Assembly (NCBI GenBank): GCA_014526335.1 | Contig: JACTAT010000024.1 | Coordinates: 459,635 to 523,634, forward strand | DNA: 64,000 nucleotides | Source: Chrysaora quinquecirrha | Lineage: Eukaryota > Cnidaria > Scyphozoa > Semaeostomeae > Pelagiidae | Direction of reading: 5' to 3' | Part shown: positions 5,305 to 58,265 of the stretch, piece after piece | Layout: every line of letters starts with the position of its first letter | Position numbering within the stretch: the stretch's first letter is position 1 | Position numbers and translations under genes: made by a program | Notes under the pieces: generated by a model | Told to the model about the DNA's origin: nothing | The model's input: only the letters and a program-made list of their open reading frames with translations | Database searches by the model: none

Positions 5305-5436
5305 TTCGGGATTCTTTCTTAACCCGAGTTTCTAATGATTTCAAACGACCTTCGCATTACTCATAGTTATCAGGAAGCGATTCCAGTAAATCGTCTAACC
5401 AAGATAAACTAACTTCATAGCGATTGCCATCAAAAT

Positions 5437-5970: not shown

Positions 5971-6054
5971 TAGAACTGCTGTCTTCTTCCTTTTGTGACT
6001 GCTCGTTGCTGAAACAGTATCCGTTCCATTTTCTCTTTCATTCTGATTTTAAAT

Positions 6055-6530: not shown

Positions 6531-6542
6531 CCCCAAAGTTTC

Positions 6543-6923: not shown

Positions 6924-6959
6924 GTTTATTTTTAATGGTCATTGTTGCGGAATTTTCTT

Positions 6960-11960: not shown

Positions 11961-11964
11961 TTGT

Positions 11965-12500
11965 CACCCTGAAATTTTTACTCAAAACAACAGATATCAA
12001 ATCTTCCTGTGATACAAACATTTGAAAGACTCCAGGTCACTGCCTTATCTGTCATAACCTGACAATGTTTGAAGTTATTTCTTACTTATTACTTCAGGTT
12101 ATGCTTGGGCTATCTACTGGAATGTTTTGTTGTACTCGATTTAGGGGGAGAAATCCAGATCAATTGGAAATATCTTGTAGTGTATCCTGTGATCGTACGT
12201 GCACTGGGGTGTTAGTAAGTAATGAACTTGCCTTCACTCTGCTGTATACCAGACATAAAGGCATGTAAGGATGGGGAGTACTACCCCCTCCAAAGAAACT
12301 TTTCTGCCTGTCCAACAACAGCACAAGTTTGCCCTAACAGATCCAATGGGTATATTATAGATTATAGGAATTATTATAGGAATTGCTTTTATTTTAGTTA
12401 TCCTCTTTATTAAAGTATGGACATGTTATGTTAATTACTTGAATATACTGTTAAATAGGAGTGTCACACAAGTGGCACACGGGACTCTGTTACATGATAT
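11965..12500. other. No recognisable gene
   Basis: Sequence between the gypsy fragment and the 3' end of the multi-exon gene. It has short plus-strand frames only (12065-12413) without family features. Confidence 0.4.
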
Positions 12501-12501
12501 A

Positions 12502-15500: not shown

Positions 15501-17435
15501 CTCATTCCCTTCCTTCTATTCCATTCCATCATATGTTCATACCATTCTTTCTAATCCATTCCAGGCTGGGTTCATTGCATTCTCTCTATTCTATTCAACC
15601 CTATGTCCATTCCATCCCAACATTCCTTTCTTTGTCCATTCAATTGCTTCTATTCCATTCCATCCTAAGTCAATTCCATATTATTCAATTCCATCCCAAG
15701 TTCATTCCATTCTCTCTATTCCATTCCATCCCAACATTTCGTCTTATTATCACATTCCACCGATCTATTGCTTCATTTCATTATATTGCTGATTGCCCTT
15801 TTCAGCTTTTCGTTACAATTTCAACATACACGCTTTTTTTATAAAGAACCTAGCTCGGGGCCTAGTTCTTAAAGTTTCTTATTTTTGGATCTCTTTTGAG
15901 ACAATTGTAGTTCCAAAAGTTCCTTAATAGTTCCTTAATTTTAACTGCACATACAGTTTGATGACTATGAAACAGATACACTTGGACGTAAGCAAAGCTC
16001 AAGAGTACTGAAGGAAACATTTGATACATGCGTAACATAAAATTTATGTGATTTTCTTCTGCTAATGAAAGGAAGCGGCATTGTAATTCTGGATTGTTTG
16101 CATTGTTCTTTACTTAATTTCCCTCTACTAGTATAAGTTCTTTAAATTTTCTGGCCTTCTGTTCCTTATAAAGTGGTTCCTTATAAAAAAGATGTGTACA
16201 TACCGACTTGCCCACACTTGAAAAGGGAAGGATGAAACAATTTTTGGGAATGACCGTTTTCTTATATTAAGTAGATTGAAAACCAAAAACTTGCTTACTT
16301 AGTTACAATCTGGTTCTCGTTTGATAATCCTCTGCATGAACACACCCAATACCCAGCAATTTGCTTTTTTGTTTGATCTTCTAGGGTCCCAATGATTTTT
16401 AGAACAAAGTCCCCCAAGAGAGCTTCATTTGCTGCACCTTTACGCCCATTGGCCTGTTTGTAATATGTAGATTTGTTCTTAACGATGTACCAATTCTTTC
16501 GGTTAGACTCGTCATAGGATGAATTCATGGGTTCATTCACATACGATAACTGCAACATGAAATAAACGAAGTCACGAACAAGCGAAATTTATGAGAAAAA
16601 TGGTGAACAATTTTACGGTAAGTTGAGATGAAAAAATGAAAATCTTCCTCTGTTTCCGACATTGTTACAACAGTGCGTTTTCTTTCCCGGTATGTATCGT
16701 CTGTCCGAATCAGCCTCCAAAAAGACTTACAATGGATGAATGTGAATAGAAACTGATCATAAGTAAGGCAATGGCGCCTGCAGGCGTATTCTATGATAAT
16801 TATTTGTAATGATTGCTAGCGGAAACACTGCGCAGTTCCCTGAAGTCACATTTTCCAGAACACGAGACTCTCAGATGAAGATGGTCTTATTTTTAGATTC
16901 TGCATGTTATGTGCCTTTTGTATTGAATGTATTAACAATGGGGAATAAGGCTTCGCGGTCTGCAAACAATCCTTTCACGCCAATATTATAATGAAGTCGG
17001 GAAAGTGTGTTTAAGACTAGTACCGTACATTCACGCTACGATTTTTTCCTGCTTTTTTTAGAAGTACAAATACCTATGGAAAAGTAGATATGCTGGTGTA
17101 TATCATGGGATATCTTCAATGATTTTTTCCAGGAGTTTCTTCTATGAAAGTACCCTCACTGAGTTTTTGTTCTTCAGTATAACCCCGCAAAAAGGGCACT
17201 CTTGTTCTAAAAAGAAAGCCTCTGCCCAAGGAACTGGTACTTCTTAAAAATTTTGTACACCTCTCCAAGGTATCGTTCTAACTGAAATCTCGTACGCTTT
17301 TTTGAAGATGCTTCTCACCTCTGGAGAAATGTAGCCCATCAACAGCCCTACGCGAAGAGACAAATTCATCACCATTTTAAGCACTTCCTTTATGTAATCT
17401 CGAAGTAAACATATCCCTCGGGCTTGCTTCAGAGA
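12502..17435 (-). CDS. Unrecognised multi-exon gene with open, phase-compatible exons and a P-loop-like motif
   Basis: Minus-strand exons inferred from splice consensus: 17435-17319 (optional first), 16549-16299, 15163-15010, 14717-14614, 14025-13907, 13766-13743 (8-codon microexon, skippable), 13266-13116, 12661-12502 with a TAA. Every junction keeps codon phase and no exon contains a stop, unlike all neighbouring genes. If the first exon is not used, an ATG at 16558 opens exon two in frame. Visible features are NWYIVKNKSTYY, AGYWVCSCRGL, SRLFVSGGLSRIDLSDYLLY, VPYSMCQGETAET and YGKAMNVGKTFT, close to a Walker A but with one residue too many. I do not recognise the family; a faint likeness to DUF927-type helicase/primase N-termini is only a guess. 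The last acceptor is weak. About 320-360 residues in total. Confidence 0.5.
15220..15770 (+). repeat. Degenerate CCATT/TTCCAT pyrimidine-rich satellite-like array
   Basis: About 550 bases made of variants of ATTCCATTCC, with recurring TCCTAAGTCCATTC and TATTCCATTCC words. The unit drifts between five and ten bases. It lies in the intron between exons 16549-16299 and 15163-15010 of the minus-strand gene. The apparent Phe/Pro/Ser/His-rich frames inside are by-products of the repeat. Confidence 0.85.
15829..16196. mobile_element. TA-flanked MITE, copy 1
   Basis: The ends are inverted: the left begins CACGCTTTTTTTATAAAGAA and the right, reverse-complemented, begins CACATCTTTTTTATAAGGAA. TA dinucleotides flank both sides (15827-15828, 16197-16198), as for Tc1/mariner/pogo elements. 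Sub-terminal AAGTTTCTTA and GTTCCTTA words repeat inside. It sits in an intron of the minus-strand gene. Confidence 0.75.
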
Positions 17436-27961: not shown

Positions 27962-28205
27962 AGGTGGTGTGGCCCAGTGGTCAAGGCGTTTGGCTCACCA
28001 TTGTGAGGTCTTGGTTTCGAATCTCGTTGGGACCACTTTCCACAAGCCTACAGTCAACTCAGCTGTCCATCCTTCCGAGGTCGGTAAATGAGTACCCAGG
28101 GTATTTGTTCTAGAATATCAGTCTGGGGGCACAAGCTGCAGGTCCACATCAGCTGCATAGCTGCCAGAACCCCCGACCTGCTTCAACAAATAAATATTGC
28201 TTGCT
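27962..28205 (+). mobile_element. tRNA-derived SINE inside the hAT pseudogene
   Basis: A polymerase III type 2 promoter is visible: box A-like TGGCCCAGTGG at 27970-27980 and box B-like GGTTTCGAATC at 28013-28023, spaced as in a tRNA. The head is followed by about 165 bases of tRNA-unrelated body (ACCCAGGGTATTTG, GGTCCACATCAGCTGC) and a TTGC microsatellite tail at about 28195-28211. The hAT reading resumes just after it. Clear target duplications were not found. Confidence 0.8.
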
Positions 28206-28579
28206 TGCTTGCATGATGCTTGCACTGATTTTGGCAAGAGAGGGGAATGATATGAATCAAGTGGAGCTTCAAGACGAGGTATTGCACTTGAAGAATGTGC
28301 ACATTGCCAATTTTGGAGAAAAACAGCTGCATCCATATGCGCTGTTATTAGATATATGCATATCTATAAAAATAGCCAATTTCAATTTGGAAGACATCTT
28401 CTGCAATATCCGCGCTGCACTCAGAATATTTTGCACACTGCCTGTTACATTTGCATCTGCACAACTCTCCTTCAGCAAGCTCAAGCTTATCAAAAATATT
28501 ATGCAAAGTACTATGAGGCGCGGATGCGGACAATACTTGGATAAACTTTTTGTCATTCAGTTATTTGTACTGTTTTGCT

Positions 28580-28758
28580 AGTTTATAAAAATTCGCTCTA
28601 ATTTTAAAAAATTTGTTCTAATTTTAAAAAATTCTTTCTAATTTAAAAAAAACGAATGCTAATAATTCTCTTGAAAAATAAATGCATTCTAATTAAAGAA
28701 TATTCACTCTAATTATAAAATTCATTCTCATTAAAAAATATTCATTCTAATTAAATTA
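28580..28758 (+). repeat. Left inverted terminal array
   Basis: About eight units of roughly 20 bases each containing TCTAATT followed by an A-run, for example GTTCTAATTTTAAAAAATT and CATTCTAATTAAAGAATATT. The array ends where the coding frame begins (LLREAATVRKDE). Confidence 0.75.
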
Positions 28759-30028
28759 TTGCTTCGTGAAGCAGCAACAGTAAGAAAGGATGAGAAAATC
28801 CTAGTTGGAATCAGGGATAAAGACTGTGTAGCAATAGAGGTACACTATCATAAGAAGTGTTACAAAAACTATACAAGCTTTTTACACAGGGAAAACACAG
28901 GAAAAAGCACAGAATCATCCTTCCTTTATGCTGCTTGCTATGAGAAATTTTGCAAAGATGTGATTGACCCTCTTATAGCACATAAAGAAATAAAGTACAT
29001 GGCAAAACGTACACAGAAAATTCCTCAAAATAGTGAATGAAGTTGAAAATATAGATGCAAGCAGTTTTCGTCGATTCAGGCTTAAAAAAAGACTAAAAAT
29101 ATCATATCCCCAGCTTGTGTTTCATACCCCAAAAGTTTGTAACCAAAGTGAAATAGTTTACACTGAAAATCTTTGCTCAGCAGATTTAGTTGGTGAAAAT
29201 ATGGCCAGTAAAGATTCGAATCATAATGATGAAGATTATGAGGAAGATAGTGAAAATGAAACCCAATGGGGAGAAGAAATAGCGCAGCACAACAAATCAA
29301 ATGTTGATCCTACTTTCAATGTCAATGAGGCTCAAATTCTGTTTCATGCCTCAATGCTCCTAAAAAGCAAAATTAACAAACCTGGCTTAGTCACTCCATG
29401 GCCCCCTCTTGCAGCAGACATTACAGAAGATAATGTTAAAAACATTGTTGACCCAAGTTTATTTGACGTCCTTGCCTGGATCTGTGGGTTCTCTGAAGAT
29501 CCCAAGCTAGATAAATATGTAACTGTAAAAGATTCTCAGTTTTCAAAATTAATGTCATTAGCACAAGATTTGATTTTTATTTCATCTGATGGTAAAAAGC
29601 CAACACCAAAAAGCATATCATTTGCCATGGCAATAAGGCAGCTAACAGGGTCATCTAATGTTCTGAAGTTGATGAACCATTTCGGACATTGCCTGTCTCA
29701 TAGGTATGTCCTTTGTCACGAGACAGCTTTGGCTCAAGTAAACATATGAAGTCAAGGTACTTCGCCACCAGGGTTCTCCAAGAGTGATTTTGCTACTCTT
29801 TCTTGGGATAATGATGACTTCTGGACAGTGGCGGACTGGCTACCATTTATCCCGCCGGGAAAAGCAACAAAAAGGCGCCAATAGGTGGGCAAACAGTAAA
29901 AACCCGCATAAAAGAACCCCTGATTTTTCTGAACAGGCTGAACCGGTTCTTATATATAGGATGCATAACAAGAAAACAGCCTCGAAGAGGTTCTTAAAAA
30001 TCATTTTGAAACAGCTTGTTATAATATA

Positions 30029-31777
30029 TTACACATGGTAGTTCTCAAGTCCTTGAGGAGATATTTTATGATCATCAGACATATCAGCTGTTATCAAACA
30101 GCCAGTTTTTGCAAATAATGTTCTCACAAATTCTTTTTTGCTGGTCACCTCTCTCCAAGCCTCGCCTGTCCACTTCGTCATCAAAATCCTCCTTTCTTTA
30201 GCTGAGATTTTATCATGCCACTCGTCTACTTCCAACCACTTTTCTATAGCTTCACCTATCTTCCCTTTCATTAGCCTTCCGAATCCGGCATCTATAGGTT
30301 GAATTTTGTCGGTATGACTTTCCGGAAGCATGTAGATGCACGCATTGATTTTATTTCGACAAGCTTGATGAAATGACTTGCTTTGTTGAAAGCCAACATT
30401 ATCCGCAAAGATAACCTTTTCCTCTTTGTCTTCTCCAATCCCAGGAGAAAGTGTGCCTTCAATCCACTGCATGTTAACTGCTGCATCCATCCAAGCACAT
30501 TGTTGAAAGTACACATCCACTCCCTTGTCATACTGTTCTTTTTCCAGATTGTTCACATGTCCTTTTCCTCTGAATATCAGAGCTGGCTTGACATTTTGCT
30601 CTTCATCAGCACGAATACACAGTTGGAGAGTTGCTTGTCTTTTGTCCAAGCCAGAAGACGGCTGTGATACCCAAACTTGCTTGGTACCCAATGTATCATA
30701 AGTCTTCTCTTGATCGACGACGAATGGGAGGGGTACTTGATCGATGTTGTACCTATTTTTAGGAATCCAACATCAATATTTTAGATCAATCTTGGAACTG
30801 TTCCTTCTCCGTTGTTTATTCAAAGCTTTCCTAAGATCCCTGTGAAACATTTGAATCTTCTCTCTACCATCATCTGCACAATCTTTCTTTTTGTTGGTTC
30901 TTGGTCGAAGTACTATTTGGTGCCTTTTCTTGAAACGTTGAAACCAGTTAGCACTTCCTTTAAATTTTCCAGCTTCATCTTTACCGTAACACAATGCAAT
31001 CTTTGCCTTCATTTTGTTTTTAATCCACATCTTGGAAACTTTGCTGCCAGTGGCTCTTCGTAGTTTGAACTCAGATAGTAGAAGGTTTGAGGCCAAAGGA
31101 TATTTACCCGTGCGTTTTGATCTATTTCCAGCAATCCTCCTCCTCTGCCTTGCAGCCCTCACTCTGCCTGTATTCCTTTTCTCTTTATTTAACACAACTT
31201 CTGCTAGAATTTTTTTCCTGTCTTTGTTCCATTTCACCACCTGGAATTTGCTGACACCTTTTTCTTGTGCGACTGTTGTGAATTTATTAGTAGAGGTTTT
31301 CAGGGAATCCAGTAGATCCGGAGTTTGCTTTTTAAACTCAACACTGTAGGATTTCCTCTTGGCACTACCCCTTCGCTTTTCATGTGACTTTGGCTTGTTC
31401 TGCTGGTTAGTAGGCCCATCATATTGACTCTTACTTTCAACATCAATAACAATTCTCGGCAAATTTTGCTTCAAGTCAGTTTGCACTGAATCTTTGTTGC
31501 TTGAAGAAGGATTATCAGTTGCAGTTGGATTTTTGTGTTTGAATTGCATATGGATATCAAAATATTGTTTTCCTGTGAACGATTGATGACAAATGCTGCA
31601 TAAAACAGGCTTACCAGGTTCCACTGTCTTCTTTAACGTTGGTGTGATGTCATACAGTGTCCCATCTTTTAATTCAACTGATTTCTTCAATCCGCAGTCA
31701 AACAGAGTACGATTCATCTTCTCAAACACAAAGCTGATCAGATGTTGAAGAACAAAGATTGAAGAAGAGAGACACAT
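30029..31777 (-). pseudogene. Tigger transposase, one nonsense codon from open
   Basis: The single frame from ATG 31777 to the stop at 30029 (582 sense or stop-containing codons) is interrupted only by a TGA at 30773-30775. In order: a C2H2 zinc finger (CSICHQSFTGKQYFDIHMQFKH, residues about 60-80, given here as positions CSICHQ..HMQFKH), basic HTH regions (KKGVSKFQVVKWNKDRKK-like), a CENPB-type segment (KFKGSANWFQRFKKRHQIV), then DDE_1 motifs after the stop: YNIDQVPLPFVVD with the first Asp, RQATLQLCIRADEEQN, VIFADNVGFQQ with the second Asp and LPESHTDKIQPIDAGFGRLM with the third. The GGA-to-TGA change in DLKY-stop seems to be the only defect. Confidence 0.85.
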
Positions 31778-31942
31778 TTGGGGACATGATGGACTATCAC
31801 GAGTTGAACTGGATTGGAGGCTGGATTCCCCCTCCTCCCCAGGTTCCTAGCCTCGTACTGGTCTTTCATCGCCGAATCTGAATCTGCTGGGAATTTAGGC
31901 CAGCAGTTAGTATTTTGATTTTTGAATTTTTCACACAGAAAA

Positions 31943-32349
31943 ATGGCAAGTGAATACGAGCTCTTCGTGGAAGCAAGTGTGCGTGGCTATCACGCATATT
32001 TCAAGAACGTCATTGTTTATATTGGAGAAGTGCTAAGCTGTGAAAGTGAACCGGACAATAATTATGACAGTTTTGCAATAGCAGTTAAGAATAATGACGA
32101 GAAAACTGTCAGTCATGTTCCTATCGAGCTTGCAAAGATTTTCATGACTTTTTATCAGATTATGGTGAGGTTCAGGCAGAATGTATTGGTAGTAGATGCA
32201 ATGAAGTTCAAACCAAAGGCCTAGAACTTCCTGTGGACTACAGACTTTCTGGAAATTACACTTACCTGGTAAGCGTATTGAAGAAATTACAGCAGAAAGA
32301 AGACAGGAGAAGTAGCTGGAAACTTACTGATGTAAAAAAATGTGTATAA
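31943..32349 (+). pseudogene. HIRAN-domain ORF carried by the Tigger element
   Basis: It begins MASEYELFVEASVRGYHAYF and contains IGEVLSCESEPDNNYDSFAI and AVKNNDEKTVSHVPIELAKI, the HIRAN pattern (GYHxY, E.dN.yD.fAvaV, vgHvP..i). A single-base shift at about 32155 separates this from DYGEVQAECIGSRCNE and KGLELPVDYRLSG, the expected end of the domain, which closes at a TAG near 32349. HIRAN domains bind DNA ends in HLTF-type helicases. Here the domain stands alone and is transcribed away from the transposase, so the two genes probably shared one promoter at 31,778-31,942. Confidence 0.75.
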
Positions 32350-33239
32350 AACAGTGTTGAGTTCCATTGACTTCTAACATGTAATGAATAACATAGATAA
32401 TCATCATGTCTGCATGTGGCCCATCCATTCATTGTGAGAAGTATGTGCATTCCCGACAAGATATTGTGAGCAACTTTTTCAGATAAAATACTTTATTGAA
32501 AGCTCCTATGGAGTTCTAAAAAGGTGAAGAGAATGTGATCATAAATTAATTTTGATTTCAGCCTCTGGAAGGGGGCATGTCCTACTGCTTTTAGGGTGTG
32601 CACATAACAAACATGAACTACTTCTTCTTAATAAACATACTTCTCAGAATGGTAAGAGGCCTAACTGCATATTTTATTTTAAGATCAAGAACATTTGAGT
32701 TTTTACCAGTGATCTTTTATATAAGAACCTACTGCATTTGCCAGGCTGAAGTGGTTCTTATAAATATGGTGCTTTATTGGTCAAAAATCAGCCTGGAGGT
32801 TCTTAATCCGCAGTTTCTTTTATGCGGGTTTTTACTGTATTGCTTAGCTTTGAGGCTAGTAAGACGGGCCTCGCAAACTTCATGTGGCCAAGAAACAGTT
32901 TTTTTCAATACAAATACATAACATTTTTTTAAATCTCTCCCAATGGACTGTGGAATGGTTTAAAAATTAGGGCTACGAGTGCAGCGAGCAAAATTTGGGT
33001 TCATTTTTGAAACCACACCATTTAGAAGCTCGCAAATGCTCCATTATGAAAATTCCAGTTATCCAGACACTAACTATTCCAAAATTCTACAGAGAAAGCA
33101 ACTTCTCCAGCCTAGGAGACAAGGTCCATCCAATTGTCCATGACTTTTACCCCAAAGGAAAGACAGTATACGTGATCAGGCAAGCCTCAATCAACAGAAT
33201 GGGGAGAGCATGTACGTTGTAATTTCATCTTTTCAACGG

Positions 33240-36130
33240 TAACTTGTGAGCAGTGTAAGCCAAAACCATCTAGGGGGGTCGGGGGATGCTCCCCTGGAAA
33301 ATTTTTCAAAATACCGGCCCTTGTTTGGCTTAGATTGGCATTTTTTTCATATACGTTACAAAAAACTTCAGAAACGACTTCAACTTAGATGAGCAAATAG
33401 ATGGCTTCAGCACTATCTAGTGGGGGAGCTTAACACTAGAATCGTGCAAAATGTGATACCAGCATGAAACTCGGTAGAAATAGGCAGTTTGATACGCTGA
33501 AAAAGATAGGATGTAGACCCACGCTGAAAAATGCCCCTTTGTTCTATTTTTAGACTGGGGTACTAGCTCCCAGGCCTCTAAAAGGAAAGTTGGAATACCT
33601 TTGCTGTATATCAAGATAAGAACATGAAACTTGGTAGAAATAGACAGTTTGATATGCTGAAAAAGATAGGATGTAGACCCAGGCTGAAAAATACCCCCTT
33701 GTTCTATTTTTAGACTGGGCTACTAGCTCCCAGGCCTCTAAAAGGAAAGTTGGAATACCTTTGCTGTATATCAAGATAAGAACATGAAACTTGGAGAAAA
33801 AGACAGTTTCATGCGCTGAAAAAGATAGGATGTAGACCCACAGTGAAAAATGCCCCCTTGTTCTATTTTTAGACTTGAGTACTAGCTCCCAGGCCTCTAA
33901 AGGGAAAGTTGGAATACCTTTGCTGTATATCAAGATAAGAACATGAAACTTGGTGAAAAGGGGTAGTTTGACACGCTGAAATAGATAGGATATGGAAAAC
34001 GACTGAAAAATGCCCCTTTTTGCTATTTTTAGAATTGGGTAATTGGTATCAGACCACCACGTACGCCACAACAGTAGTTTTGTTATCTGTGCTATTTTTA
34101 GCCTGGGGCCATTTGATAACAATATAAGCTGTTAACAGTAGTTTTATTGTAAAATGAAATTCGGGCATCAAACTTTGCGAAAAGGGGCTGTTTAATAAGG
34201 TAAAGAAACCATTCCAAAGAAACTGGGAACCAGTGCGTGAAGCTTCAAACAATCATGCTCATGAGCCACACATTCAAATTTTCCCTAAGGGTCATCACAC
34301 CACGCGTGCGATATGAAATAGGCACATCCATAAATCTATGACAACGGTCCTTTCAGGTCAGCCAACAACATCAGCAAACCGATAGGGTTGCCATCACGCG
34401 TAGTGTAATACAGGGCTGGTTACAATCAACAGTCTACAACAATATATACAGTTAGCCCACCTTATGGCCTTTGGAAAACCACGACGGCGTAAAAATTGGT
34501 GGTGTTAACATCATGAACATCAAATACGCTGGTGACACAGACGCTACAGAAGCTAGTAGATTGTTATGTCAAGGAGAATGATGATGCTGGGGTGGCACGA
34601 GTGGCACTTAACACAAAGAGAAACGAGACGATGGTCCTAACGAAGCTTAAAGATGTTCCCAAGTGCAAGATCGATATAAACGGCGTGCAGCAAAAACAGG
34701 TCTAACTATTCAAATCCTTGGATCCTTCGTTAGGTAGTACCGGAAACAAGGAGAAGAAATAAAGGCCAGAATAGAAATAAAGGCAAGTCAACATCACGGT
34801 CATGCAACAAGCAGCAGACGAGTCCTTCCATTACTTGAAGAAGAAGAAGATCCTTAGCAGACCTGAAACTAAGGATCAGTCACTCTTGGGTTACTTTTCC
34901 TCGCTTGACAGCTATAAAAATCACAATTTAAAAGAAATCTCACTTGCTCAAAATGCTAACCATTGGTCGTTTGATAAATTGTACTCCATCTCATCCCTCT
35001 AAGCATTTATTCACTGTACTTACTTCGTGTTATGTTGGATGTTATCATTATAAATATCCCTGGTCTAAAAATTGTACAAATGGGCATTTTTAGGTCGTTG
35101 TCAATATCCTATCTTTCTCAGTGTGTCAAAATATCGCTTTTCACCACTTTGATATATGTATCACAATACATATTAGAACTACTGTTATAGCTTATGTAGA
35201 GGTCTGATACCAATTACCCCAATCTAAAAATAACACAAGGGGGTATGTCTCAGTTGTGGTCCACATCCATCCTTTTTAGCATCTCATACTACCCCTTTTT
35301 CGTCAAGTTTAATGCATGTGCAATTCATATTAGAACTACATTTGTAGTTACGTAGAGGTCTGATACCAATTACCCCAATCTAAAAATAACACAAGGGGGT
35401 ATGTCTCAGTTGTGGTCCACATCCATCCTTTTTAGCGTCTCATAACCCCTTTTTCGTCAAGTTTCATGCATGTGCAATTCATATTAGAACTACAGTTGTA
35501 GTTACGTAGAGGTCTGATACCAATTACCCAAATCTAAAAATAACACAAGGGGGTATGTCTCAGTTGTGGTCCACATCCATCCTTTTTAGCATCTCATACT
35601 ACCCCTTTTTCGCCAAGTTTCATGCACGTGCAATTCATATTAGAGCTACAGTTGTAGTTACGTAGAGGTCTGGAACCAATTACCCCAGTCTAAAAATAGC
35701 ACAAAGGGACATTTTTCGTTTGGGGTCTGCATCCTATCTTTTTCAGCGTATCAAACTGTCTATTTCTGCCAAGTTTCATGTTCTTATCTTGATAAACAGC
35801 AAAGGTATTCCAACCTTCCTTTTAGAGGCCTGGGAGCTAGTACCCAAGTCTAAAAATAGAACAAGGGGGCATTTTTCAGCGTGGGTCTACATCCTATCTT
35901 TTTTAGCGTATCAAACTGCCTATTTCATGCTGGTATCACATTTTGCAGGATTGCACTATTTTTATGTGTTAAGCTCCCCCACTAATCATGGTTGAACTTT
36001 TTCAAATTTGTCCAAGTTTCGCTCTACAGTAACTCCTAATCAAATTGTTGGGACTAACGTTGCCAATAAGGTAAAATTTTTGGACCGACTAGATCGACTG
36101 ACAAAATATTGAGGGTGTCACACCCCGACC
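33240..36130. repeat. Large palindrome with inverted arrays of about 150-160-bp repeats
   Basis: The left arm (33419-34060) has about four direct copies of a unit containing GATAGGATGTAGACCCA, CTATTTTTAGACTGGGGTAC and AGCTCCCAGGCCTCTAAAAG. The right arm (35040-35985) has about six copies in the opposite orientation. Outside the arrays the arms still pair, for example GGGGGAGCTTAACAC (left) with GTGTTAAGCTCCCCC (right). The centre holds a LINE remnant. All lies inside the hAT-like element. Confidence 0.8.
34310..34800 (+). pseudogene. LINE reverse transcriptase scrap
   Basis: Broken frames read VNIMNIKYAGDTDATEAS (normally YADDT; the first Asp is Gly here), NTKRNETMVLTKLKD, CKIDINGVQQKQV and FKSLGSF, the post-catalytic region of an RTE/L2-like RT. 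No endonuclease or tail is present. It sits between the two repeat arms of the palindrome. Confidence 0.6.
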
Positions 36131-39100
36131 CCCCTCTAATGTGCGCCCCTGGCTTTAGATCTTTGAGAGGGAATGGATACTTATTTAATATGATGAGAGG
36201 GAGGGATGATTGTTTTTTGAAATAACAAGTTTTTTTAAAAAAGTTAAGGCAAAGGGCGCACCGGGGAATTTCCCAGTGTCCTGTTGGGCCAGTCCCCTTC
36301 TGCTTCTGGAAACCAAAACTGGAAAGGGAACTACACATGTTACAGGTGGGATTATCATTCAACGATGCAATTCTGAGGCTGGAGAAACAGATTAAAGAGG
36401 AAATTTGGCCAGATCATCAACATTGAAACTGAGCGCAGATGAAATTAAACCTTATTTTCTTCGACAAAAAGTCACTGTTGATCTCAAGGAAGAACTCAAT
36501 GAAATATCCATTGAGCACTCAGATTATCTGTCAATGCAAGACAGAGGAAAGAGACTTGATCTTGCATTAGTAATGTCTTCAAAGGTCAGCAAAGGGAATG
36601 TCTTTTGCCAAACTGGACAAGTTTTAACACTTTGGTTCAAAAAAAGAAAATCCCAGTTTTGTCAAGGATTGGATATTTGCCAATCATTAATGCCCCTCCA
36701 ACAGAAATATCATCTGTCAATGCTATATTGGAACGTAGTACACAAATAGCAGACAAGTCAAGTTGTCGCTATGTCTGTCTCGTCTTTGATGAAGCTGTTT
36801 TTGCAAAGATACAAACAAGTCCACTGAAAAGAGACAGCTTATCTGAATAGGTTCGTAGTTCGTCTCGGAGAATTTCACATGGCTATGTCATTCTGTGGTG
36901 CAATCGCAAAGTTATTTAAGGATGCAGGATTGAAGGTAAATATTAAAAAAAATATTTTTAGCCATAATTAATCACCTAATTAAAATTGGTTGCTATCTCT
37001 TTCTTGAAACAAATCCGCCTCAGAGGTCTTGAGTTAAGTGAGTATGATGTGCATGAAATCCATTGGAATTTTTTTTCTTTTTGTTTCATTATCTGACGGT
37101 GGAAATGGCAAAAATTTCATAATTAATGAAATTAATTTATTCAAGGACTTGCTCGTTGAATCTGAGATTGTTGCAGAAGGATCCATTAATGGAGTTTTGA
37201 AAGGAAAACATTACAATCGAAGTGTGTGTGCACATAAAGTATTATACGAAGCATTCACACACATGCTATTTGATATGCATCTGCAGTCACTGCCTTCAGA
37301 ATCACAGGATAACATACTAGAGTTCATTGGTAAAGTATATTTTTGATATTCATAATTGATTTTGGTTGTAATTCCTTTTTGAAATTAATAAACTCTATTA
37401 TAATTAAAGATAATATGATGCAAAAAATGAAGAACTGTATTAAGCAAAATAAAAATTTTTTATTTCCCTTCATGCAATTCACATACTTTTACCATTAAAT
37501 CAATACATTCTTTACTAGAAATTGATGATATCATTCAATTTTGTAGAGTGTATGGCTGAAGCATACCCAGGTGAACAATTTGAGCACTACGTCCTCTCTC
37601 CAAACTTCGAGTCTATTCAGAATGATTTCGATGCCTTTGTGGAGGAGATTTTTTATTTGGAGATGGTACAGATTCTTCTTCTGTTCATCCGAGCAACACG
37701 AGAAAACAATTGGGAGTTGCATCTATCAGCAGTACGGTCCATGCTACCTTGGTTTTTCGTTACAGATCCTGTCAATTATGGGAGATACGGATCTATCTAT
37801 TGGCTGGAGATGATCCCTATCAATTCAACACACCCAGGTATATGTTTTATAGTTGTAGAGATGACAAATGTTGTGAAAGTCGTTATGATAACTGTTTTGT
37901 TTAATTCATCATTGTTTTTTGACACAGGACCAGGCAACCCATGGAGAGTACTGGATATTGATAAGATCCATCGTCAATTGGGAGCACGGCTTTGCGATGC
38001 ATTAATTGGATATCATGCATTTACAGGTATTTGCAAACTGAGGGCTCTCCATAAAATCAGTTGTATAAATTGGTTCTTACATATTCTCAAGCGCCAAGAG
38101 CTCTGTCATATTTATTCATAACTACCATTACTCTATTACATTTCTAGGCTGTGACAGTACAAGTGCTTTTCACTCAAAGGGAAAAGTTAAACCCTTCAAG
38201 GTTTTGGATAGTAATTCTGATTTCCTTAGTACATTCCAAACTATTGGCTCCACTTTCTCTTGGAACGCTTCACTGGAAAAGCAGGTTGAAAGATTCGTCG
38301 GTGTACTATATCAGCAAAAAAAGAAGAAAATGTTGATATTGCCCAATATAATATTTTTCGGCTTGGGAGATATTGTGGGACTGACATGCCATGCACAAAA
38401 GATGTATTGAAGAAGCACTTGAGCCGAGTAGTTTACCAGGCTGCAATCTGGAAGCAGTGTCTAATCCCCGTGATGAACTGCCCAGACATTGATCAACAGG
38501 GCTGGAGTGTGGACAAGGAAGGGAGTGTGAAGGTAGACTGGATGGACTTGCCACCTGCCCCAGATGGAATATTGGAAAATGTTCAGTGCTCCTGCAAAAA
38601 AGGCTGTGCCTCAAACAGATGCTCATATCAAGAAGCAAATTTACAGTGCACAGGTCTCTGTCGATGCAGTTCATGCGAAAATAGTATGGCCAGCAGTGGA
38701 GACGGAGCTGAAAGTAATTGCAGTTATTACAGTACTGATGCATCAGAAACAGATGAAAGTGACGTTGATGATTAACATTTTACTTTAATAACTATTATTA
38801 CTAAGATTTTTGCTTCATACCTCATTGTTTATGCAGGTAAAACAAGTTCTCAAATTGGCCCCCTTCGACTGGGTCCCTCTTGGAGGTTTCATTTCTCGAT
38901 TAGTTGATTCATGAGCCAATACCCTAGAGACCTATGCATTAGATAGTTTAAGTAAAAGATTCGATGTAATTGTCTCTTCTCAAGTTTTGTTACGTTTTGT
39001 GTAGCTTTCTAGCGACTTTTACATCTAAGTCTCATTATCCTCCGATCATCCTCTCTGCTAAGAAGTCCCAGAGATCGTGATTGGCACAATTTAGAAGATT

Positions 39101-39448
39101 TAAGTTGTATTTAAACTATTGCCTAAAACATACACAAAACTAATTGCAGTTTTCGTACTAAAGCAACTGCTGTTGTATTCCAACATACAAATGTTCCTTC
39201 GCAGCTACGATACAAAGGAGTCCTGTTCCCACACTTCTAACTAGTAACTAAATGCCCCAATTTTTTATAATTCAAACTTTTTTTAACCTAAAGAGCATTT
39301 GGAAGTATAGTTTCCTTCAACTCAGCATATGTAACTCACTTTGCTCATTGATTTTTTATATTGATGATGTCATAGATCTATTACCAACTTTACCCCCTCA
39401 TTTCATGATATTGTGCAAACATATCATTAAGGGGTTCATGGTTTCTGG

Positions 39449-39945
39449 TTAGCAATGTGTTAAGCTACATTTCTGCGCAAAAAGTTTTATTCTCGCCATA
39501 TGTGCAGCAGAAATGGATTTCTGGACCGGAAAGAATGCCACACGTGACGGCCTAATGCTTTCCCATGAAGAGTGCTTGCTTCTCAGATACAGCAGTTGGT
39601 TCTCCTGTATATCAATTCGAGGCCTCCCCCTTTCCCCAGTGTTAACTGGTTCCATGTGATACCCCTGGCAACCATTCAGTGCAATGGCATGAATCATGTT
39701 AGCCACATATCTCTTTCTATCAACAAACAGTCCTGCCAATTATGACAATTTATCACCCTATCACAAATCATGCTGAACGAAAAGCAAATATCATGCAACC
39801 GTCTGTCAAGAACATCAAGTCTATCTAAAGACTCGTTTCCAGAATTTTCTGCTGTAGTTTATCTAACCTCTGCAAGAACGGTTTTGCAGCCCTGCACAAA
39901 AGCATCAAAATCTCTCTGTCTGGGTGGTACCACTATATCCGCCAT
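39449..39945 (-). pseudogene. Integrase-type transposon protein, N-terminal part
   Basis: It starts at ATG 39945 with MADIVVPPRQRDFDAFVQG and reads through one TAA (after VLAEVR) and one frame change near 39735 into DRKRYVANMIHAIALNG, then GERGRPRIDIQENQLLYLRS. The GRPRxxIxxxQLxYL block precedes a homeodomain-like helix-turn-helix in a family of animal integrase-core (rve) proteins found in Ginger-like and other elements. The catalytic core itself is not visible; 38800-39440 reads poorly. Its position at the right terminus, opposite the CXC gene, suggests it was the element's recombinase. Confidence 0.5.
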
Positions 39946-40014
39946 CCTTAATCCTTGCTGCAAATACTCACAATTAACGTTTCTCAAGTAAAACGATTAT
40001 AAGAATGTATTTCA

Positions 40015-40219
40015 AACAGAATGATTTCAGATGAGAATGAAAATGTTTTAATTAGAATGCATTTATTTTTCCAGGGCATGCACTTTTAGTCAGAATGAAT
40101 GTTTGAATGCATTTATTTCAAACAACGTGCATTTTAATGAGAATGAATTTTAGAAAATTAGAATGAATGTTTGAAAATTAGCAAGTGTTTTTAAAAATTA
40201 GAACGGATTTTCATAAACT
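40015..40219 (-). repeat. Right inverted terminal array
   Basis: This is the mirror of the left array, with units such as GAAAATTAGAATGAATGTTT and TTTTAATGAGAATGAATTTT. The outermost 30 bases align with the left terminus with about four mismatches. It starts about 70 bases outside the ATG of the minus-strand integrase-type frame. Confidence 0.75.
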
Positions 40220-40389
40220 CATTTAAGCCAGAAGCAACGTTTCCGGGCATAAAAAAAAAACCTATCCAAAAGCTAGCTGTAACCCTGGACCTAGACTAGC
40301 CTTTTCTTTTAAGCTGGTGTTAGATTAAAATACGTCTCAGGGTGGATTGATTATACTAATGCATACTACTAGGCTTTTAGATAAAAGGT

Positions 40390-42308
40390 CTAATAGCACG
40401 GTATTTCATTATATCTGGAAGATTGTAAATAATATGGTTCAATCATACCATAGTTCTGTTGTATCGGATTCTGGTATGGTGAAAGTTGTTGGAAATGAGC
40501 CTGGCCAGGAATCTGTTGAGGGGGTTTATATTGAAGAAAGCTGATCGGTTGTTGGTTCAGCATCGTCATATTTGAAGGCTTTGGCATTTGATTTTGAGTT
40601 GGGTAGAAGTGTTTGAGGGATGATATGTTGCTGAAGCTGGTATGGTTGAAATTGGTGTGGCTGTTGTTGAAGTTGTTGTTGTTGTGATGATTGCTGCTGT
40701 TGTTGATTGATCTGGTTTAGTTGAGATTGCTGAGGTTGTTGATGTTGTAGCTGTTGCTGCTGGTGTGTTGGTTGCTGTTGTTGATAATGCTGCCGCTCGT
40801 GTTGTTCTTCATTAATTGGGTTTACTTGGTGGTTTCCTTGGTTGTTTGAAATTGGTGGTAGGTGGAAGTTTCTTTGACGTATTTGCCTTGATGTTTGAGG
40901 AGGTTCTCTATTAGGCGTACTTGAAATTTCTGACTAGCACTGATGTGCCTCTTTCTGTGAGGTGTAGTCCGTCACGTCTTAAATCTGGGTCTGTCAATGT
41001 GCTGGTATTGTCGATTATAAAATACTCTAGGCGACTTGCCATGATTCTCAGGTTGTCATTAATGAAATCGATTTTTTCTTCGAATTCTGGATCGCGGTCT
41101 TCATTTCTGACCTCTGTTGGTAGAATGTTGGATATTAATAATTTTGCCTGTGGATATTTTTCTTTGATGTATTTTATCAGGTCTTCGAATAATGCAACAA
41201 TTTCAGATTCTGTTTCAGATCTAAGATTATTTGTGCCTGCGTGAATTAATATTGTTTCGACATTTACTAATTTTAACATTGCAAGATGGGATTTGATACC
41301 TTGGATATTCCGCCCCCGAAGTGTTCTTATTTTCGTGTAACCACTTCTGTCAAATTTCTTTGGGTAAATTCCTTGTATGATGGAATCACCAATTATAAAG
41401 GTCTTGCACTCGATCTCCGTTATTTGACGTGATGAGTTGCCATTGTTGATTTGTCTTTGGCTCCTGCGGTTGATGACAGGAATAAAATCATCATCAGCTG
41501 CTTCTTCTGCTGGAGATCGTTCTTGCAGGCCAGGTTGTACTGCTTGGGCTTGGTCCGTAATCGTTGCCTGAGGTTCCGTAGTATTCGAGCACGTTATATT
41601 TTTGTTTACATCTTGTAGTTCGTCCTTGACATATCGTCGCAATTCAGAAAGGGATTGGTGAATTTTCCTTTGATTTTCCGAATTTTTTTCTATGTGGGAT
41701 TTCAGTTCTTCCATTTCTGTAGTGAGGCTTTCTATTTTTATTGTTGTAAATTTGTTAGTATTTTTTTCTATTGTTTGTTCATCGTACAGGTTTTGCTGAA
41801 TTTTTGTAATAATGCTTTTTGTTTCTTAAATTTCTGTAGACATTTCTTTTTTTAACATTTTGGCTAGGGGGCAATCAAGATCTATTTTATCCTCTGTAAG
41901 CTTATGTTGATTCTGTGGATGTTGCTTAACTTCGTTGCTTGTCTCGTGAGCCAATTTCTCAACTGCATTTAACCTCTCTATTAGATCCGAAATTGTTTCT
42001 TTATTTCTCGTTACTTCGTTTTTTAGCCTTTCGTTCTCCTCTTTGAGAAGATATATCTCTTTTTCTAGTATGATTTCTTCAAGTATGCTGTCGCTACCGA
42101 TTGTGCCGATAGAATACTCGTCTGCGATTTCTTCATACGTTTGTTCAGTTTCGTTTCCTTTGAAAGATTCAATATTGTTTGTATTGTCTTCTTCAGAATT
42201 ATAACTCTCAAACATATCATTTTGGCTTTGTTGCAGCATAATTTCAAAGCCTTTCAATTCACTGTTTTTTGACTTCAACTCAACTTCCACATCACCAACG
42301 TGGATCAT
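40390..42308 (-). pseudogene. LINE ORF1: coiled coil, SGNH esterase domain, Q-rich tail
   Basis: The minus-strand frame from 42308 has a leucine-rich coiled coil (LLKEENERLKNEVTRNKETI) and one in-frame TAA at about 41826, after which the same frame continues to 40911. The esterase domain shows TFIIGDSIIQGIYPKKF with the nucleophile Ser, TILIHAGTNNLRS and DGLHLTERG with the Asp/His pair. Past 40911, a shifted frame gives a Gln-rich tail encoded by CAA/CAG-rich DNA (40590-40800). Esterase ORF1s are typical of CR1/L2/Rex-type LINEs. ORF2 is absent; the large element ends 170 bases downstream and may have separated them. Confidence 0.8.
40590..40800 (-). repeat. CAA/CAG-rich low-complexity tract encoding poly-Gln
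   Basis: On the minus strand the DNA is an irregular run of CAA, CAG and CAT codons (QQQQQ with H, P, L). On the plus strand it appears as TTGTTGTTG and TGCTGCTG. It is the C-terminal tail of the esterase-type ORF1. Confidence 0.8.
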
Positions 42309-42309
42309 C

Positions 42310-44400
42310 AGAGGATATGAATAGTTGGGATTGAAAACATCTTAAAATCTTAATGTTGATATGTTTATATCATACTTTAAAGTGCTTATGCCACCAAATA
42401 TTCAATCTTAATTTTTTTATGTTTTCTGAAAATTCAATCCTTCCTGATCTTCTTTATGGTAGTTTGGCTTCTTTCTGACGAATACAACTGATTTTATCAA
42501 TGTTTGAAACTGGACCTCTCGTGTGAAAGCTGCTGTCAAGTTGTGACCTCAGTTTTCATCATACTGCAAACCAATGGGAAGAAGCAAACCCGCATCACAA
42601 CTTTTTCAATATCTCTGCTCAGAGTAGGGTGATTTTTGTTCTTGTGGCTCATATGAAGCGCAAATCTTTCTTCTTTCATTTGGTTATAATTTTGCTGCAT
42701 TTTAAGCATTGTAACTATTTTTAAATAATTTTCAAAAATAGTCAGTAGAAGATTTTTGTGACATGACATTGATGTGCGACTTCTCTTCGTGACTATGGAT
42801 TGTGTTGTTCTGTTGGGTTGATCTCACTCCTGCACATTGTTCTTGGGGTAATTTTTGCTCTCATTCTTAAAAAAGACTTAAAATTTAAGTTAATTGAGGT
42901 GACAAGAAATAATGTAGCTTTCAGGAGCATGTTACAAGAAGAAACAAGGAAGTTTGAAGCTGACGAATTGATGACGTAGAAGAGACCTGCTTCCCTATAG
43001 TTATTCTAGTGTGATCAACACGTACACACATGGGATATCTAGGCTGATGAACCACCCATTGACCAATAAATAGCAGTAAGGCAGTAAGTAGATAAGCAAA
43101 CCAAAGAATTCATGCTTATTGCAAAACTTGCAAAAAATAAAATATAAAGATTGAGAAAACAATCTACTGTTATTACAAATGATTGTATAGAAATTATTTA
43201 CATTATACATGATTTACAATGAATTAACAGTGAAAATCCTGCTTTTCTTTTCAGTTGAGGTGATTCATTAACAGTTGAGAGACTCAAAAATGGCATTGAA
43301 GAAAGGAGTACTTTATCATCTTTACAGTGTAAATTAGAGGTTTCATACCCTGCCTTGAGGATTTCCACACATTTGGACAATTTTTGGGAGTAAGTCTTGT
43401 TGTCCAAAAGATGTTTCCCGAGTTTAAACCTTTCACTGTCTGCACTGCACAAGTGTAAAAGACAAAATTAAATAGTGTATTTAATGCAACTAAACTTTAT
43501 GATGCAGTATGCTATCTGTATTTTCAATTTACAATTGATTATCATTGATGAAATAATGTCTTTGATTTGAAATTCATACAAGGGCATTTGTTACTATTTT
43601 TAGGTGATCGGGAGACAACCGTTTGATGAAATTATCTCCAGCAATATTCTTTTAATCAAAACTATTCTTTTTATGCTGTCAATGCACCATATAATCTTTC
43701 AAGTTCATATGCAGATGTTTTGTTCATTGCCTGCTTTGAAATTGTGAAATCCAGAACAAGAACAGAATCTGGATTACCATGGGAGCAAGAAGAAAAATGT
43801 AACAATATACTGGACCTCATTCTTGATAACTTTGCCGTTAACAGATTTCAAATTGTAAAGAAATATAACAAATGCCAATAGTACCATAAAGTTTGCAAGA
43901 GATAAAGGGCGTAAAAACATGACATAGAAGCACAATTGTGAGGCTTCTTCGGTGAAATTATCAAGGAGCAAAGTCGATAGCCTTCTCAATTCTTGAAAGG
44001 ATGCCTTAGCACTTCAAATGTAAGCAAAGTGCTTTGCTTCTACAGGAAAGCAAGGTAACGGAAAACAGATAATTTCTTTACAAAATATTTAGCTCAGCTT
44101 CAAAAAAGAAGCTTATCACAGAAATGCATATTACAGCCTTTACACAATTGTTCAGCTGTGGTGTATCATCTGTTACCATGATCCATTGCACATATATTGG
44201 TTTTGTTAGAATTGCACCAAAATTCGGAAGGAAGAGGAGAGTCTAATGACCAGAGTGATCATCTGAGGTTGTCAAAAAGGACTGCAAGAGCTTTCAAGGG
44301 AAGGTTACCTCAAAGAGCATTGCAAGAGCCTGTTGTTCTTATACTGGAAGAGATCTACTCATAACAGCTCATGATGAAGCATTAAAAATTCACTGTATTT
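42310..44400. other. No confident gene; one possible exon
   Basis: The minus-strand frame at 43198-43452 (ADSERFKLGKHLLDNKTYSQ, 84 residues) follows a plausible acceptor and might be an isolated exon; the family is not recognised. Other frames here are short and unremarkable. Confidence 0.35.
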
Positions 44401-44419
44401 TAGGCATAGATGAAAAGCA

Positions 44420-45380
44420 AAATGCTACAGCAGATTTGCATTAGCTTACAAGACAATTTTCAATTGATGGCTTTATTACCCAGAAAAATGATCGCAAACG
44501 TGGAAGGGGTGGCAGTGTTGTGGTTTATATAAGTAACTCACTTAAATGGATAAGACGCCAGGACTTAGAATGCCCAGATATCGAGTGCGTATGGCTTGAG
44601 ATTCTTTTGAAAAAATCTAAAAGTCTAATTGTTCAAATACCAGCAATCATCTTGCTAAATCCATTGTGGTAGACAGTTGTCTGAGCGACAACTGCATGAT
44701 TGGTGCAGTCAGAAAAATGCACAATTTCCGTCTCCCGCCACAAGAAATCAATTGCAGAAATGACAGAAATTACAACAAGGAATTGTTTGTAAATGACCTA
44801 AAAAGTGTCCCTTGGGTGCATGTTTATAACAGTTCAGACATAAATGCTGCTTAAGATAGTGTTGAAACTTTTGTAACTGACTCAGTAAATAAACATGCAC
44901 TGATAATAAAAAGGGAAGTCCATGCAATACGATGTCCATGGAGAACAACGGAGGCGAATAAGGCAGTCAAAACAAGGGACTACTATCTTCGTAAGGCAAA
45001 GAAGTCTGGGACCGATAATTATCGGAGCCTCTACAAAAATGCAAGAAACAAAGTTAACAGACTAATCAGAAAATCTAAAGCCAAATATCATCGAAACTTG
45101 CTAAATGAAAATACTAATGATCCGAAAAACTAGGTATATCCTATGAAAGAAAAGCCTCAATCAAATTATAAGGCATTTGAAATTTCTGGCGAATCGATAG
45201 GGACATTGCAAACTCCTTCTGTGAGTTTTTTGCATCACAGGCTGCAAAGCTGTGTGAATTATTACCTAATCAATTCAAGTGGCAAAATACCAGCGATATC
45301 CCCCAGACGCCTCATAGTTTTAATTTTCAACCAGTCACTAAAGGAAGAGTTCTTTGTAGTCTTAATAATTTAAAGATGAG
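44420..45380 (+). pseudogene. LINE endonuclease C-terminus and linker
   Basis: Fragments include GGSVVVYISNSLKW, IECVWLEILLKKSKS, and 44666-44854 with CLSDNCMIGAVRKM, where the catalytic SDH is SDN. The linker follows (CPWRTTEANKAVKTRDYYLR, YRSLYKNARNKVNRLIRKSK). The loss of the catalytic His adds to the frame breaks. Confidence 0.75.
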
Positions 45381-45409
45381 CTGGCCCAGACAATCTGCCT
45401 CCAAGACTC

Positions 45410-46823
45410 GTGAAATATGCTGCTGCAATTCTTGCAGGTCCCTTGTCTTATCTGATAAATCTTTCATTTAAACATTCAACTTCTCCGAAAAGTCTCAAGA
45501 TTGCAAAAGTGATTCCGTTACTCAAATCAGGACCAAGAAAGAGCTTAGAAATCTACAGACTGATCTCTATCTTGCCCATACTGTCAAAGATTTTTGAAAG
45601 GATTGCTTACCAACAGATTGCAGAATTCCTTGAGAATAATAAACTAATTGTTTCAACACAATTTGGTTTCAGGAAAAGATACAACACTGAACCTTGCAGT
45701 TACAGTATTTACAGATAGAATCAGAAGATCCATTGACCAAGGGAAAATGACAGGAGCAGTGTTTATAGACCCGTGGAAAGCTTTCGACACTGTCCAACAT
45801 TCAATTTTACTTCAAAAATTACCTTTTTATGGTATCCGTGATGCTGTATTGAAATGGATGAAAAGCTATTTGAAAGAGAGAAGGCAGTTTGTTCAGTATG
45901 ATGGGGAAAGCTCTGACGTTTTCAAGGTAGAACATGGTGTGCCACAAGGATCTATTTTAGGGCCATTGCTCTTTATTTTGCATATCAATGACTTGGTTAA
46001 GGCTGTAAAAGAGTGCCAGGTTCTCATGTATGCAGATAATACAGTCATTTATACTGCAAGTCAAATCATCACTGAAATTTAAAGGGCTTTGACCAATGAG
46101 ATGGAAAATATCTCCAATTGGCTCGATAATAATAGACTTGTGATAAATCTTAAGAAAGGTAAAACTGAGGCCATGCTACTCGGGACAGCTAAACTTCGTT
46201 CAATGATAGGAGGGTTTAACGTATTGTTTGGTGACAAGCAAATAAATGTTACAGATACATACAGATACCTTGGAACATATCTGGATCAAAGTCGGAGCAT
46301 GAGATTGCATCTTGACCATGTCAATAAGAAAGCTTCAACTAAGCTAAAACTTCTCTCAAGGATGAGGCCTTTACTGACTAGATCATCTGCTGAGAGTGTC
46401 ATTGTACCAGGAATCCTTTATTGTTCTACTTCTGTCCTAAAATTTTCTGACACAGACTCAAGATAATTCGAATAACTTCAGAATAGAGCTGTAAAGATAA
46501 TTTACGGAAAGCAACAGAAAGACTCCAATTTAATGTCATTCGAAAACACCAAGAAATACAAGGCTTGTCTATTGGTTTTTAAATGCCTAAAGAGAGCATC
46601 TATAGAAGTTGTGAACACATGTCTTGAGCCCTTAAATCATAATCAGAACACTCGCAACAATAAATATGCAGCCAAAATCCCGAGAGTTAGGACAGAAACA
46701 GGAAAAAAGGCCTTTTGGTTTCAAGGCCCAAAAATTTACAATGAACTGCCTACCAACCTTCGCCAGTTGGATACATTCATTCTTTTCAAGCAAAATCTAA
46801 AACGTTTTTATATGTATAATTAA
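45410..46823 (+). pseudogene. LINE reverse transcriptase and C-terminal region, YADN variant
   Basis: Motifs in order: SLKIAKVIPLLKSG, FERIAYQQIAEFLENNKL, QFGFRK, AVFIDPWKAFDTVQHSIL (first Asp; normally DLSKAFD), EHGVPQGSILGPLLF, then VLMYADNTVIYTAS, where the second of the two catalytic Asp codons is AAT. The thumb follows (YRYLGTYLDQS, NKKASTKLKLLSRM) and the end reads FWFQGPKIYNELPTNLRQ. Frames change near 45650, 46085 and 46466. Confidence 0.85.
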
Positions 46824-57315: not shown

Positions 57316-58078
57316 CATATAACATACCCTATTAGCAAATATGTGATCTTTCAAGAAATGGCTGTATGCTTCACTTCATGTTAGCAAGTCCTGGACAAAA
57401 ATACTGTATTACTATAATGGCAACATTTAACATCAAATGTTGCTGAATACTATTATAAACAAATTAACAAAAAATTTTTCTGAACAGCTTCTGAACTTCA
57501 TGTCTACAAGACAAATGTGATCTGTATTACCTGCTCAAGGCAAGGGTATCATGGGGTACCACCCATGTTATGTAGCAGGATTGATCAGCCACATTATTAG
57601 TTGATTTATCAGTCGTAAATGCCAGAAGTATAAACAGTTTCAAAAACAAATTAGACACATTTTATAAAGACAAAATATTGTCTACAGACCCTAGCGCATA
57701 TAACATACCCTATTAGCAAATATGTGATCTTTCAAGAAATGGCTGTATGCTTCACTTCATGTTAGCAAGTCTTGGACAAAAATACTTTATTACTATAATG
57801 GCAACATTTAACATCAAATGTTGCTGAATACTATTATAAACAAATTATCAAAAATTTTTCTGAACAGCTTCTGAACTTCATGTCTACAAGACAAATGTGA
57901 TCTGTATTACCTGCTCAAGGCAAGGGTATCATGGGGTACCACCCATGTTATGTAGCAGGATTTATCAGCCACATTATTAGTCGATTTATCAGTCGTAAAT
58001 GCCAGAAGTATAAACAGTTTCAAAAATAAATTAGACACATTTTATAAAGACAAAATATTGTCTACAGACCCTAGCGCA
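57316..58078 (+). repeat. Tandem direct duplication, two copies of about 381 bp
   Basis: The first copy is 57316-57696 and the second 57697-58078. Both start CATATAACATACCCTATTAG and end CTACAGACCCTAGCGCAT. They differ at only about ten positions. Each copy ends with a short frame resembling a LINE ORF2 C-terminus (INSFKNKLDTFYKDKIL). The duplication is recent relative to the surrounding decay. Confidence 0.85.
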
Positions 58079-58265
58079 TTTTAACAATAAACAACAACAC
58101 ATAAATTTAAATTATAACATATTAATGGGGTCTGCTTGAGTAAAAGGGGTAGGCTTGCAGCTGATGGTTTTGATTACACAATTTTCTTTCTTTCTTTGCC
58201 CCCCAGCTCTCCTTTTTGCTCGAGTGGCCCCTATATGAGTTTGCTACAGGCTCTTAGCCTGCTGC

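What the first reader, a model, noticed from the sequence alone, without database searches (positions are those of the whole stretch)
28580..40219. Large element with inverted arrays of about 20-bp units, a CXC-tailed spliced gene and an integrase-type gene
The outermost 30 bases at 28580 and 40219 are reverse complements with few mismatches, and both continue inward as arrays of the same short unit. The enclosed genes converge: a spliced plus-strand gene with a CXC-like end, and a minus-strand frame with the GRPRxxI block seen before integrase cores. Array-type termini with this gene pair are not something I can match to a named transposon superfamily. That it is one mobile unit is inference; the inverted termini are seen directly.
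Basis: partly seen in the sequence, partly recalled or inferred. Interest (0 to 1): 0.78.

Follow-up and report, generated by a model that had tools for sequence, protein, structure and literature searches.

The report
Jumping genes nested inside jumping genes
A stretch of animal DNA that looked like one strange mobile element is really a wrecked stack of known kinds of jumping gene: one with an integrase, cut open by a second with a DNA-trimming enzyme, with two more inserted later.

Summary
The inverted arrays are real, but the CXC/integrase gene pair is an accident of nesting. (1) The arrays are the inner ends of an IS3EU/GingerRoot-type integrase transposon. Its true left end is 28512 (TATGAGG...), 68 bp outside the reported end. 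The right tip, lost in the window, survives on contig C381, probably the other haplotype; the flanks give a 6-bp target duplication, AAGTAC. (2) Another copy of this family (C348) carries a HECT-like gene converging on the integrase frame, and no CXC gene. (3) CXC-family genes form a different transposon of about 7-8 kb: four complete copies have their own TAG.CCG ends, with no integrase found in any of the four. Predicted protein: hAT-like RNase H domain, FEN1/EXO1-type nuclease, CXC tail, fitting AcademX. (4) In the window the CXC element ends at 39554, exactly where the integrase gene breaks off. A deletion (inferred) fused its truncated gene to the left array near 28756. Pogo-like and foldback-like elements inserted later. 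The single-unit reading holds for the termini, not for the gene pair.

The parts
28114..28511 (+). Relic of a hAT-type transposase gene into which the integrase transposon inserted; last 6 bases (28506-28511, AAGTAC) are the target-site duplication
   Evidence: Flanks joined with one AAGTAC read on in frame across the site, with one stop soon after; the duplication matched at 1 of 7 offsets tried, offset 0. The hAT label is a motif recalled by eye (LPVT..A.LSFSKLKLIK); Pfam found no family in this stretch.
28512..28755 (+). Left end of the IS3EU/GingerRoot-type transposon: 70-bp tip (TATGAGGCGCGGATGCGG...) plus array of about 20-bp units (about 28582-28755)
   Evidence: Same tip and array at C381, C295, C302 and C348; alignment to the C381 right tip
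28756..29892 (+). 5'-truncated part of the CXC/FEN transposase gene (first retained exons), with a frame change near 29010
   Evidence: tblastn: P0006 residues 10-83 at 28798-29019 and 83-340 at 29018-29821; P0001 221-485 at 29012-29821. In C157 the homologous exon runs on upstream.
29893..32838 (-). Nested pogo-like transposon inside the CXC gene
   Evidence: 24-bp perfect inverted repeats; DDE_1 E 5.3e-13 and HTH_Tnp_Tc5 E 9.8e-7 on the minus strand. Flanking dinucleotides are AA and TA, so no clean TA duplication.
33272..36135 (.). Nested foldback-like palindromic element made of inverted arrays of about 160-bp units
   Evidence: Inverted arms 33440-35952 at 97% and 33272-36135 at 73%; inverted pairs among the 160-bp units
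36282..38772 (+). Further exons of the CXC/FEN transposase gene; CXC-like tail at about 38584-38685. Most of the nuclease domain is missing.
   Evidence: tblastn exons 36282-36935, 37140-37328, 37534-37836, 37900-38763; no match to P0006 residues 728-1183. Of 9 motif strings searched for in 37001-38800, only the GCDS and SKGK strings were found.
38898..39554 (+). Right subterminal region and right terminus (TAGGCCGTCACG... read inward) of the CXC transposon
   Evidence: Also at C343:536444-537968 without a CXC gene in the fetched stretch; last base 39554; ends compared with C390, C251 and C157
39555..39945 (-). N-terminal 138 residues of the integrase-type transposase, interrupted at 39554/39555
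   Evidence: tblastn of the C295 integrase: residues 1-62 at 39945-39760 and 74-138 at 39748-39554
40000..40217 (-). Right terminal array of the IS3EU/GingerRoot-type transposon, its outer 70 bp and about 344 bp of flank lost in this haplotype
   Evidence: C381:15865-16906 is 99.6% identical to 39177-40217 and continues to the tip at 16976

Best explanation
The region is a mosaic of nested, decayed transposons, not one new element. Steps in order: (a) an IS3EU/GingerRoot-type cut-and-paste transposon inserted with a 6-bp duplication into a hAT-like relic; its intact form has tip plus array termini, a spliced HECT-like gene and a converging D,D34E integrase gene. (b) An AcademX-like transposon, which encodes one protein made of an RNase H transposase domain, a FEN1/EXO1-type flap nuclease and a CXC zinc tail, inserted into the integrase gene after codon 138. 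(c) One deletion removed the integrase carrier's interior and the 5' end of the AcademX-like element, joining the left array to the CXC gene in mid-exon near 28756. (d) A pogo-like and a foldback-like element inserted into the CXC gene. (e) The right tip was lost in the window's haplotype, while the other haplotype lost 23.4 kb on the left. Shown: termini and duplication, the composition of other copies, the position of the break, the predicted folds. Inferred: the order of events, a single deletion in (c), that the termini are bound by the integrase through the arrays, and that the flap nuclease trims ends during transposition of the CXC element.
Against: The duplication rests on one locus, with the left flank from the window and the right flank from C381. 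C381 is 99% identical over most shared stretches but only 83-86% over 40217-40901 and 41316-42305, so its allelism is not perfect. No copy of the integrase family with both tips was found; C295 starts at a contig end and C348 lacks its right tip. The CXC element's left end and its duplication are gone in the window, so its insertion cannot be proven by a duplication. Similarity of the window's CXC-element end to other ends is short: 10, 8, 7 and 6 of 12 terminal bases, with local scores of only 10-12. No close DNA copy of the window's CXC element was found: the dedicated search never got an answer. Foldseek itself gave no match at E <= 0.001 for either model. Pfam did not recognise the hAT relic or the C348 second gene itself. 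C157 shows only a 2-bp match of its flanks.
Confidence: 0.88

Rival explanations
1. A genuine two-gene transposon: a subfamily of the array-ended integrase element that has taken up the CXC gene as its second gene in place of the HECT-like gene, and moves it.
For: The CXC gene lies where the HECT-like gene lies in C348, in the same orientation, converging on the integrase. One contig length, 2738133 bp, is listed both for a CXC relative (P0036) and an integrase relative (P0176), so the two may lie on one contig elsewhere, at unknown distance.
Against: The CXC gene starts in mid-exon right at the array, the integrase gene stops at codon 138 exactly at a TAGGCCGTCA end, and complete CXC elements have their own ends without integrase in 4 of 4. 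A full-length CXC contig (L032) has no integrase match in it, including about 2.1 kb downstream of the gene.
Confidence: 0.07
2. The CXC segment was pulled in as filler DNA during repair of an excised integrase transposon rather than by its own transposition.
For: The left junction is ragged and in mid-exon; no CXC left terminus or duplication is left in the window.
Against: The right junction is exactly at a TAG.CCG terminus, which insertion explains without coincidence.
Confidence: 0.05

Closest known systems
IS3EU/GingerRoot DNA transposons
   Same: TA..TA termini (TATGAGG..CCTCATA), 6-bp TSD, integrase-type DDE transposase; published marks read in passages of PMC10045372. Fungal IS3EU also carry passenger genes, some opposite to the transposase (PMC12730594, passages).
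   Different: Here the ends are long arrays of about 20-bp units and the second gene in C348 is HECT-like. Whether animal IS3EU entries in Repbase already list such a gene could not be checked.
Academ DNA transposons, AcademX lineage
   Same: Nuclease-encoding, 3-4 bp TSD (stated for AcademX in PMC10045372, passage); here a FEN/EXO1-type nuclease fold and 3- or 4-bp flank matches in 3 of 4 complete copies. Recalled, not checked: Academ proteins carry an XPG nuclease and a cysteine-rich region.
   Different: No Academ reference sequence was available to compare; membership by sequence is untested.
hAT transposases (Hermes)
   Different: hAT elements have 8-bp TSDs and no FEN-type nuclease (recalled); sequence identity over the alignment 10%

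Membership tests
IS3EU/GingerRoot | TA..TA termini | tested here: met
   TATGAGG at window 28512 and at C381, C295, C302 and C348 tips; feature stated in PMC10045372
IS3EU/GingerRoot | TSD usually 6 bp | tested here: met
   AAGTAC at one locus, flanks from window and C381
IS3EU/GingerRoot | Integrase-type DDE transposase core | tested here: met
   C295 frame: rva_4 E 2.1e-81, rve E 6e-8; D243, D300, E335 invariant in 28 sequences. Missing from the window copy.
IS3EU/GingerRoot | Phylogenetic grouping with IS3EU/GingerRoot transposases | not tested
   No reference sequences at hand
Academ (AcademX) | TSD of 3 or 4 bp | tested here: inconclusive
   TTTA in C251, TTT in C390, GAA in C434; only 2 bp (TG) in C157: 3 of 4 complete copies. 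Short A+T-rich matches can be chance; not testable for the window copy.
Academ (AcademX) | Encodes a nuclease (XPG type, recalled) | tested here: met
Academ (AcademX) | Sequence similarity to Academ transposases | not testable with these tools
   No Academ profile or reference sequence available
Ginger1/Ginger2 | TSD of 4 bp (Ginger1) or 4-5 bp (Ginger2) | tested here: not met
   TSD at the window locus is 6 bp; published lengths from a passage of PMC10045372

The most novel reading that the evidence does not exclude
The TAG.CCG elements encoding an RNase H (hAT-fold) transposase fused to a FEN1/EXO1 flap nuclease and a CXC tail are a transposon superfamily separate from Academ, hidden in animal proteomes as uncharacterised proteins of about 1,400 residues, in which the transposase brings its own 5'-flap nuclease to process the ends it cuts.
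Probability: 0.2. Interest if true: 0.55.

Novelty: new member of a known kind. Interest (0 to 1): 0.3.

Why it matters
It shows that two abundant, poorly annotated animal gene families, the CXC proteins of about 1,400 residues and the rva_4 integrases, belong to different transposons and should not be read as one system. It gives the CXC family a concrete domain prediction (RNase H transposase, FEN-type nuclease, CXC) and shows in one genome that its members sit between their own inverted ends. It also points to a HECT-like ubiquitin-ligase gene as partner of the integrase element.

Full report
Observation. The inverted arrays are real and well above chance: 26 of 30 outer bases match, and array-to-array alignment scores 69 against a maximum of 37 in 500 dinucleotide shuffles and 19 on the same strand. 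The arrays are units of about 20 bp. The window lies at C179:459635-523634 of a 328-Mb assembly of an unnamed animal-like genome.

The ends. A search of the assembly with the right part found matches at C381, C295, C348, C302 and C343 besides the window. At C381, C295, C302 and C348 the homology to the left array starts not at 28580 but at about 28510-28512, with a 70-bp G+C-richer tip TATGAGGCGCGGATGCGG.... A second search with a tip plus array of C295 gave 6 places: C295, C381, C302, C348 and the two ends in the window. The window's right end is cut at about 40217. C381 is 99.6% identical to 39177-40217 and runs on through the tip to 16976. C381 looks like the other haplotype: it matches 11964-15742 and 42306-46441 at 97-100% and joins 15742 directly to 39177 at a shared CCAACAT. 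It is only 83-86% identical over 40217-40901 and 41316-42305, which a simple allele does not explain.

Target duplication. The window reads AAGTAC|TATGAGG at 28506-28512 and C381 reads CCTCATA|AAGTAC at its end. Of 7 end offsets tried only offset 0 gives a 6-bp match. Joined with one copy, the flanks read on in frame (...KLKLIKNIMQST/MTQE*VTNLALLS...), which I recognise from memory as a hAT transposase C-terminus; Pfam finds no family in it. TA..TA ends and 6-bp duplications are the published marks of IS3EU/GingerRoot (PMC10045372, passages only).

The integrase and its real partner. The minus-strand gene in the window matches only residues 1-62 and 74-138 of the homologous frame in C295. That frame is 500 codons from ATG to TGA, with rva_4 at E 2.1e-81, rve at E 6e-8 and D243, D300 and E335 invariant in 28 aligned sequences. 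In C348 the copy has left tip, array, a spliced plus-strand gene at about 636895-639160 and a converging integrase frame of 457 codons at 639568-640938, truncated at its start and with an internal gap. The plus-strand gene has no Pfam match of its own. Of its 20 listed relatives, 8 carry PF00632 HECT; P0243 passes the HECT cut-off and P0241 does not. In one EukProt source the closest relatives of this gene and of the integrase are named gene832-124_t and gene833-125_t, that is, probably neighbours, while the best CXC relative is gene1845-2078_t. No CXC match was found in the fetched stretches of C348, C302, C295, C381 or C343; C295 begins at a contig end and says nothing about its left part.

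The CXC gene is from another transposon. Its relatives are animal proteins of up to about 1,450 residues: 182 at E <= 0.001, the best 120 listed. In the same assembly a relative (P0006) gives 56 matches, 33 of 1719 candidates having been scored. I fetched five of these places. C251 and C257 share 7.8 kb at 99.5% identity. Complete elements with inverted ends were delimited in four: C251 (7,858 bp), C390 (7,282 bp), C434 (973-8255 of L036) and C157 (1125-8050 of reversed L037), with ends TAGTCCGG, TAGGCCGT/TAGACCGT, TAGTCCGG and TAGGCCGT. Flanks match over 4 bp (TTTA), 3 bp (TTT), 3 bp (GAA) and only 2 bp (TG) respectively. No integrase match was found in any of the four; no HECT-like match in the three tested, C251 not having been tested for it.

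How they came together in the window. The CXC element's right terminus (TAGGCCGTCACG...) ends at 39554, and the integrase gene resumes at 39555 with ATGCTTTCCC, which in C295 and C348 is preceded by TTTGCA. TAGGCCGTC occurs once in the window on both strands. The match of this end to other CXC ends is short: 10, 8, 7 and 6 of 12 bases; to C157 the first 8 bases match and a GTCCAGAAA block further in is shared. The subterminal region 38898-39557 also occurs at C343. On the left, the CXC gene begins in mid-exon next to the array near 28756, whereas in C157 the exon runs on upstream. A single deletion from the left array into the CXC gene would remove the HECT-like gene, integrase residues 139-500 and the CXC element's left end together. 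That order is inference.

Later insertions. A pogo-like element lies at 29893-32838 and a foldback-like element at about 33272-36135. The window's CXC gene has a frame change near 29010, lacks the part matching P0006 residues 728-1183, and so lacks most of the nuclease domain.

Verdict. Both are members of known kinds.

Noticed in passing
L009 (G000:C348:632001-642000), about 4895-8938: Array-ended integrase transposon with a converging spliced HECT-like gene whose end keeps an RTCGP motif resembling a HECT active-site region (by eye).
   Followed up: partly
L032 (JAJRVU010000273.1): A 6.5-kb contig filed in a Planctomycetota MAG carries an uninterrupted open frame of 1,466 codons of the animal CXC transposase family: probably eukaryotic contamination.
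   Followed up: partly
window 33272-36135: Foldback-like element built of inverted arrays of about 160-bp units; related units at C302:867528-869388.
   Followed up: no
window 31919-32224: Plus-strand frame inside the pogo-like element that looks HIRAN-like by eye; not tested.
   Followed up: no
window 15742 to 39177: A 23.4-kb stretch absent from contig C381, joined there at a 7-bp microhomology CCAACAT next to an ATTCC-rich array at 15264-15731.
   Followed up: partly
C343:536935-537775 (in L016): Insertion of about 840 bp inside the C343 copy of 38898-39557, flanked by ATGATGTCA on both sides, probably a small transposon.
   Followed up: no
window 57316-58079: Two tandem copies of 380 bp at 98% match.
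   Followed up: no
P0036 and P0176: A CXC relative and an integrase relative list the same longest contig length, 2738133 bp; distance between them unknown.
   Followed up: no
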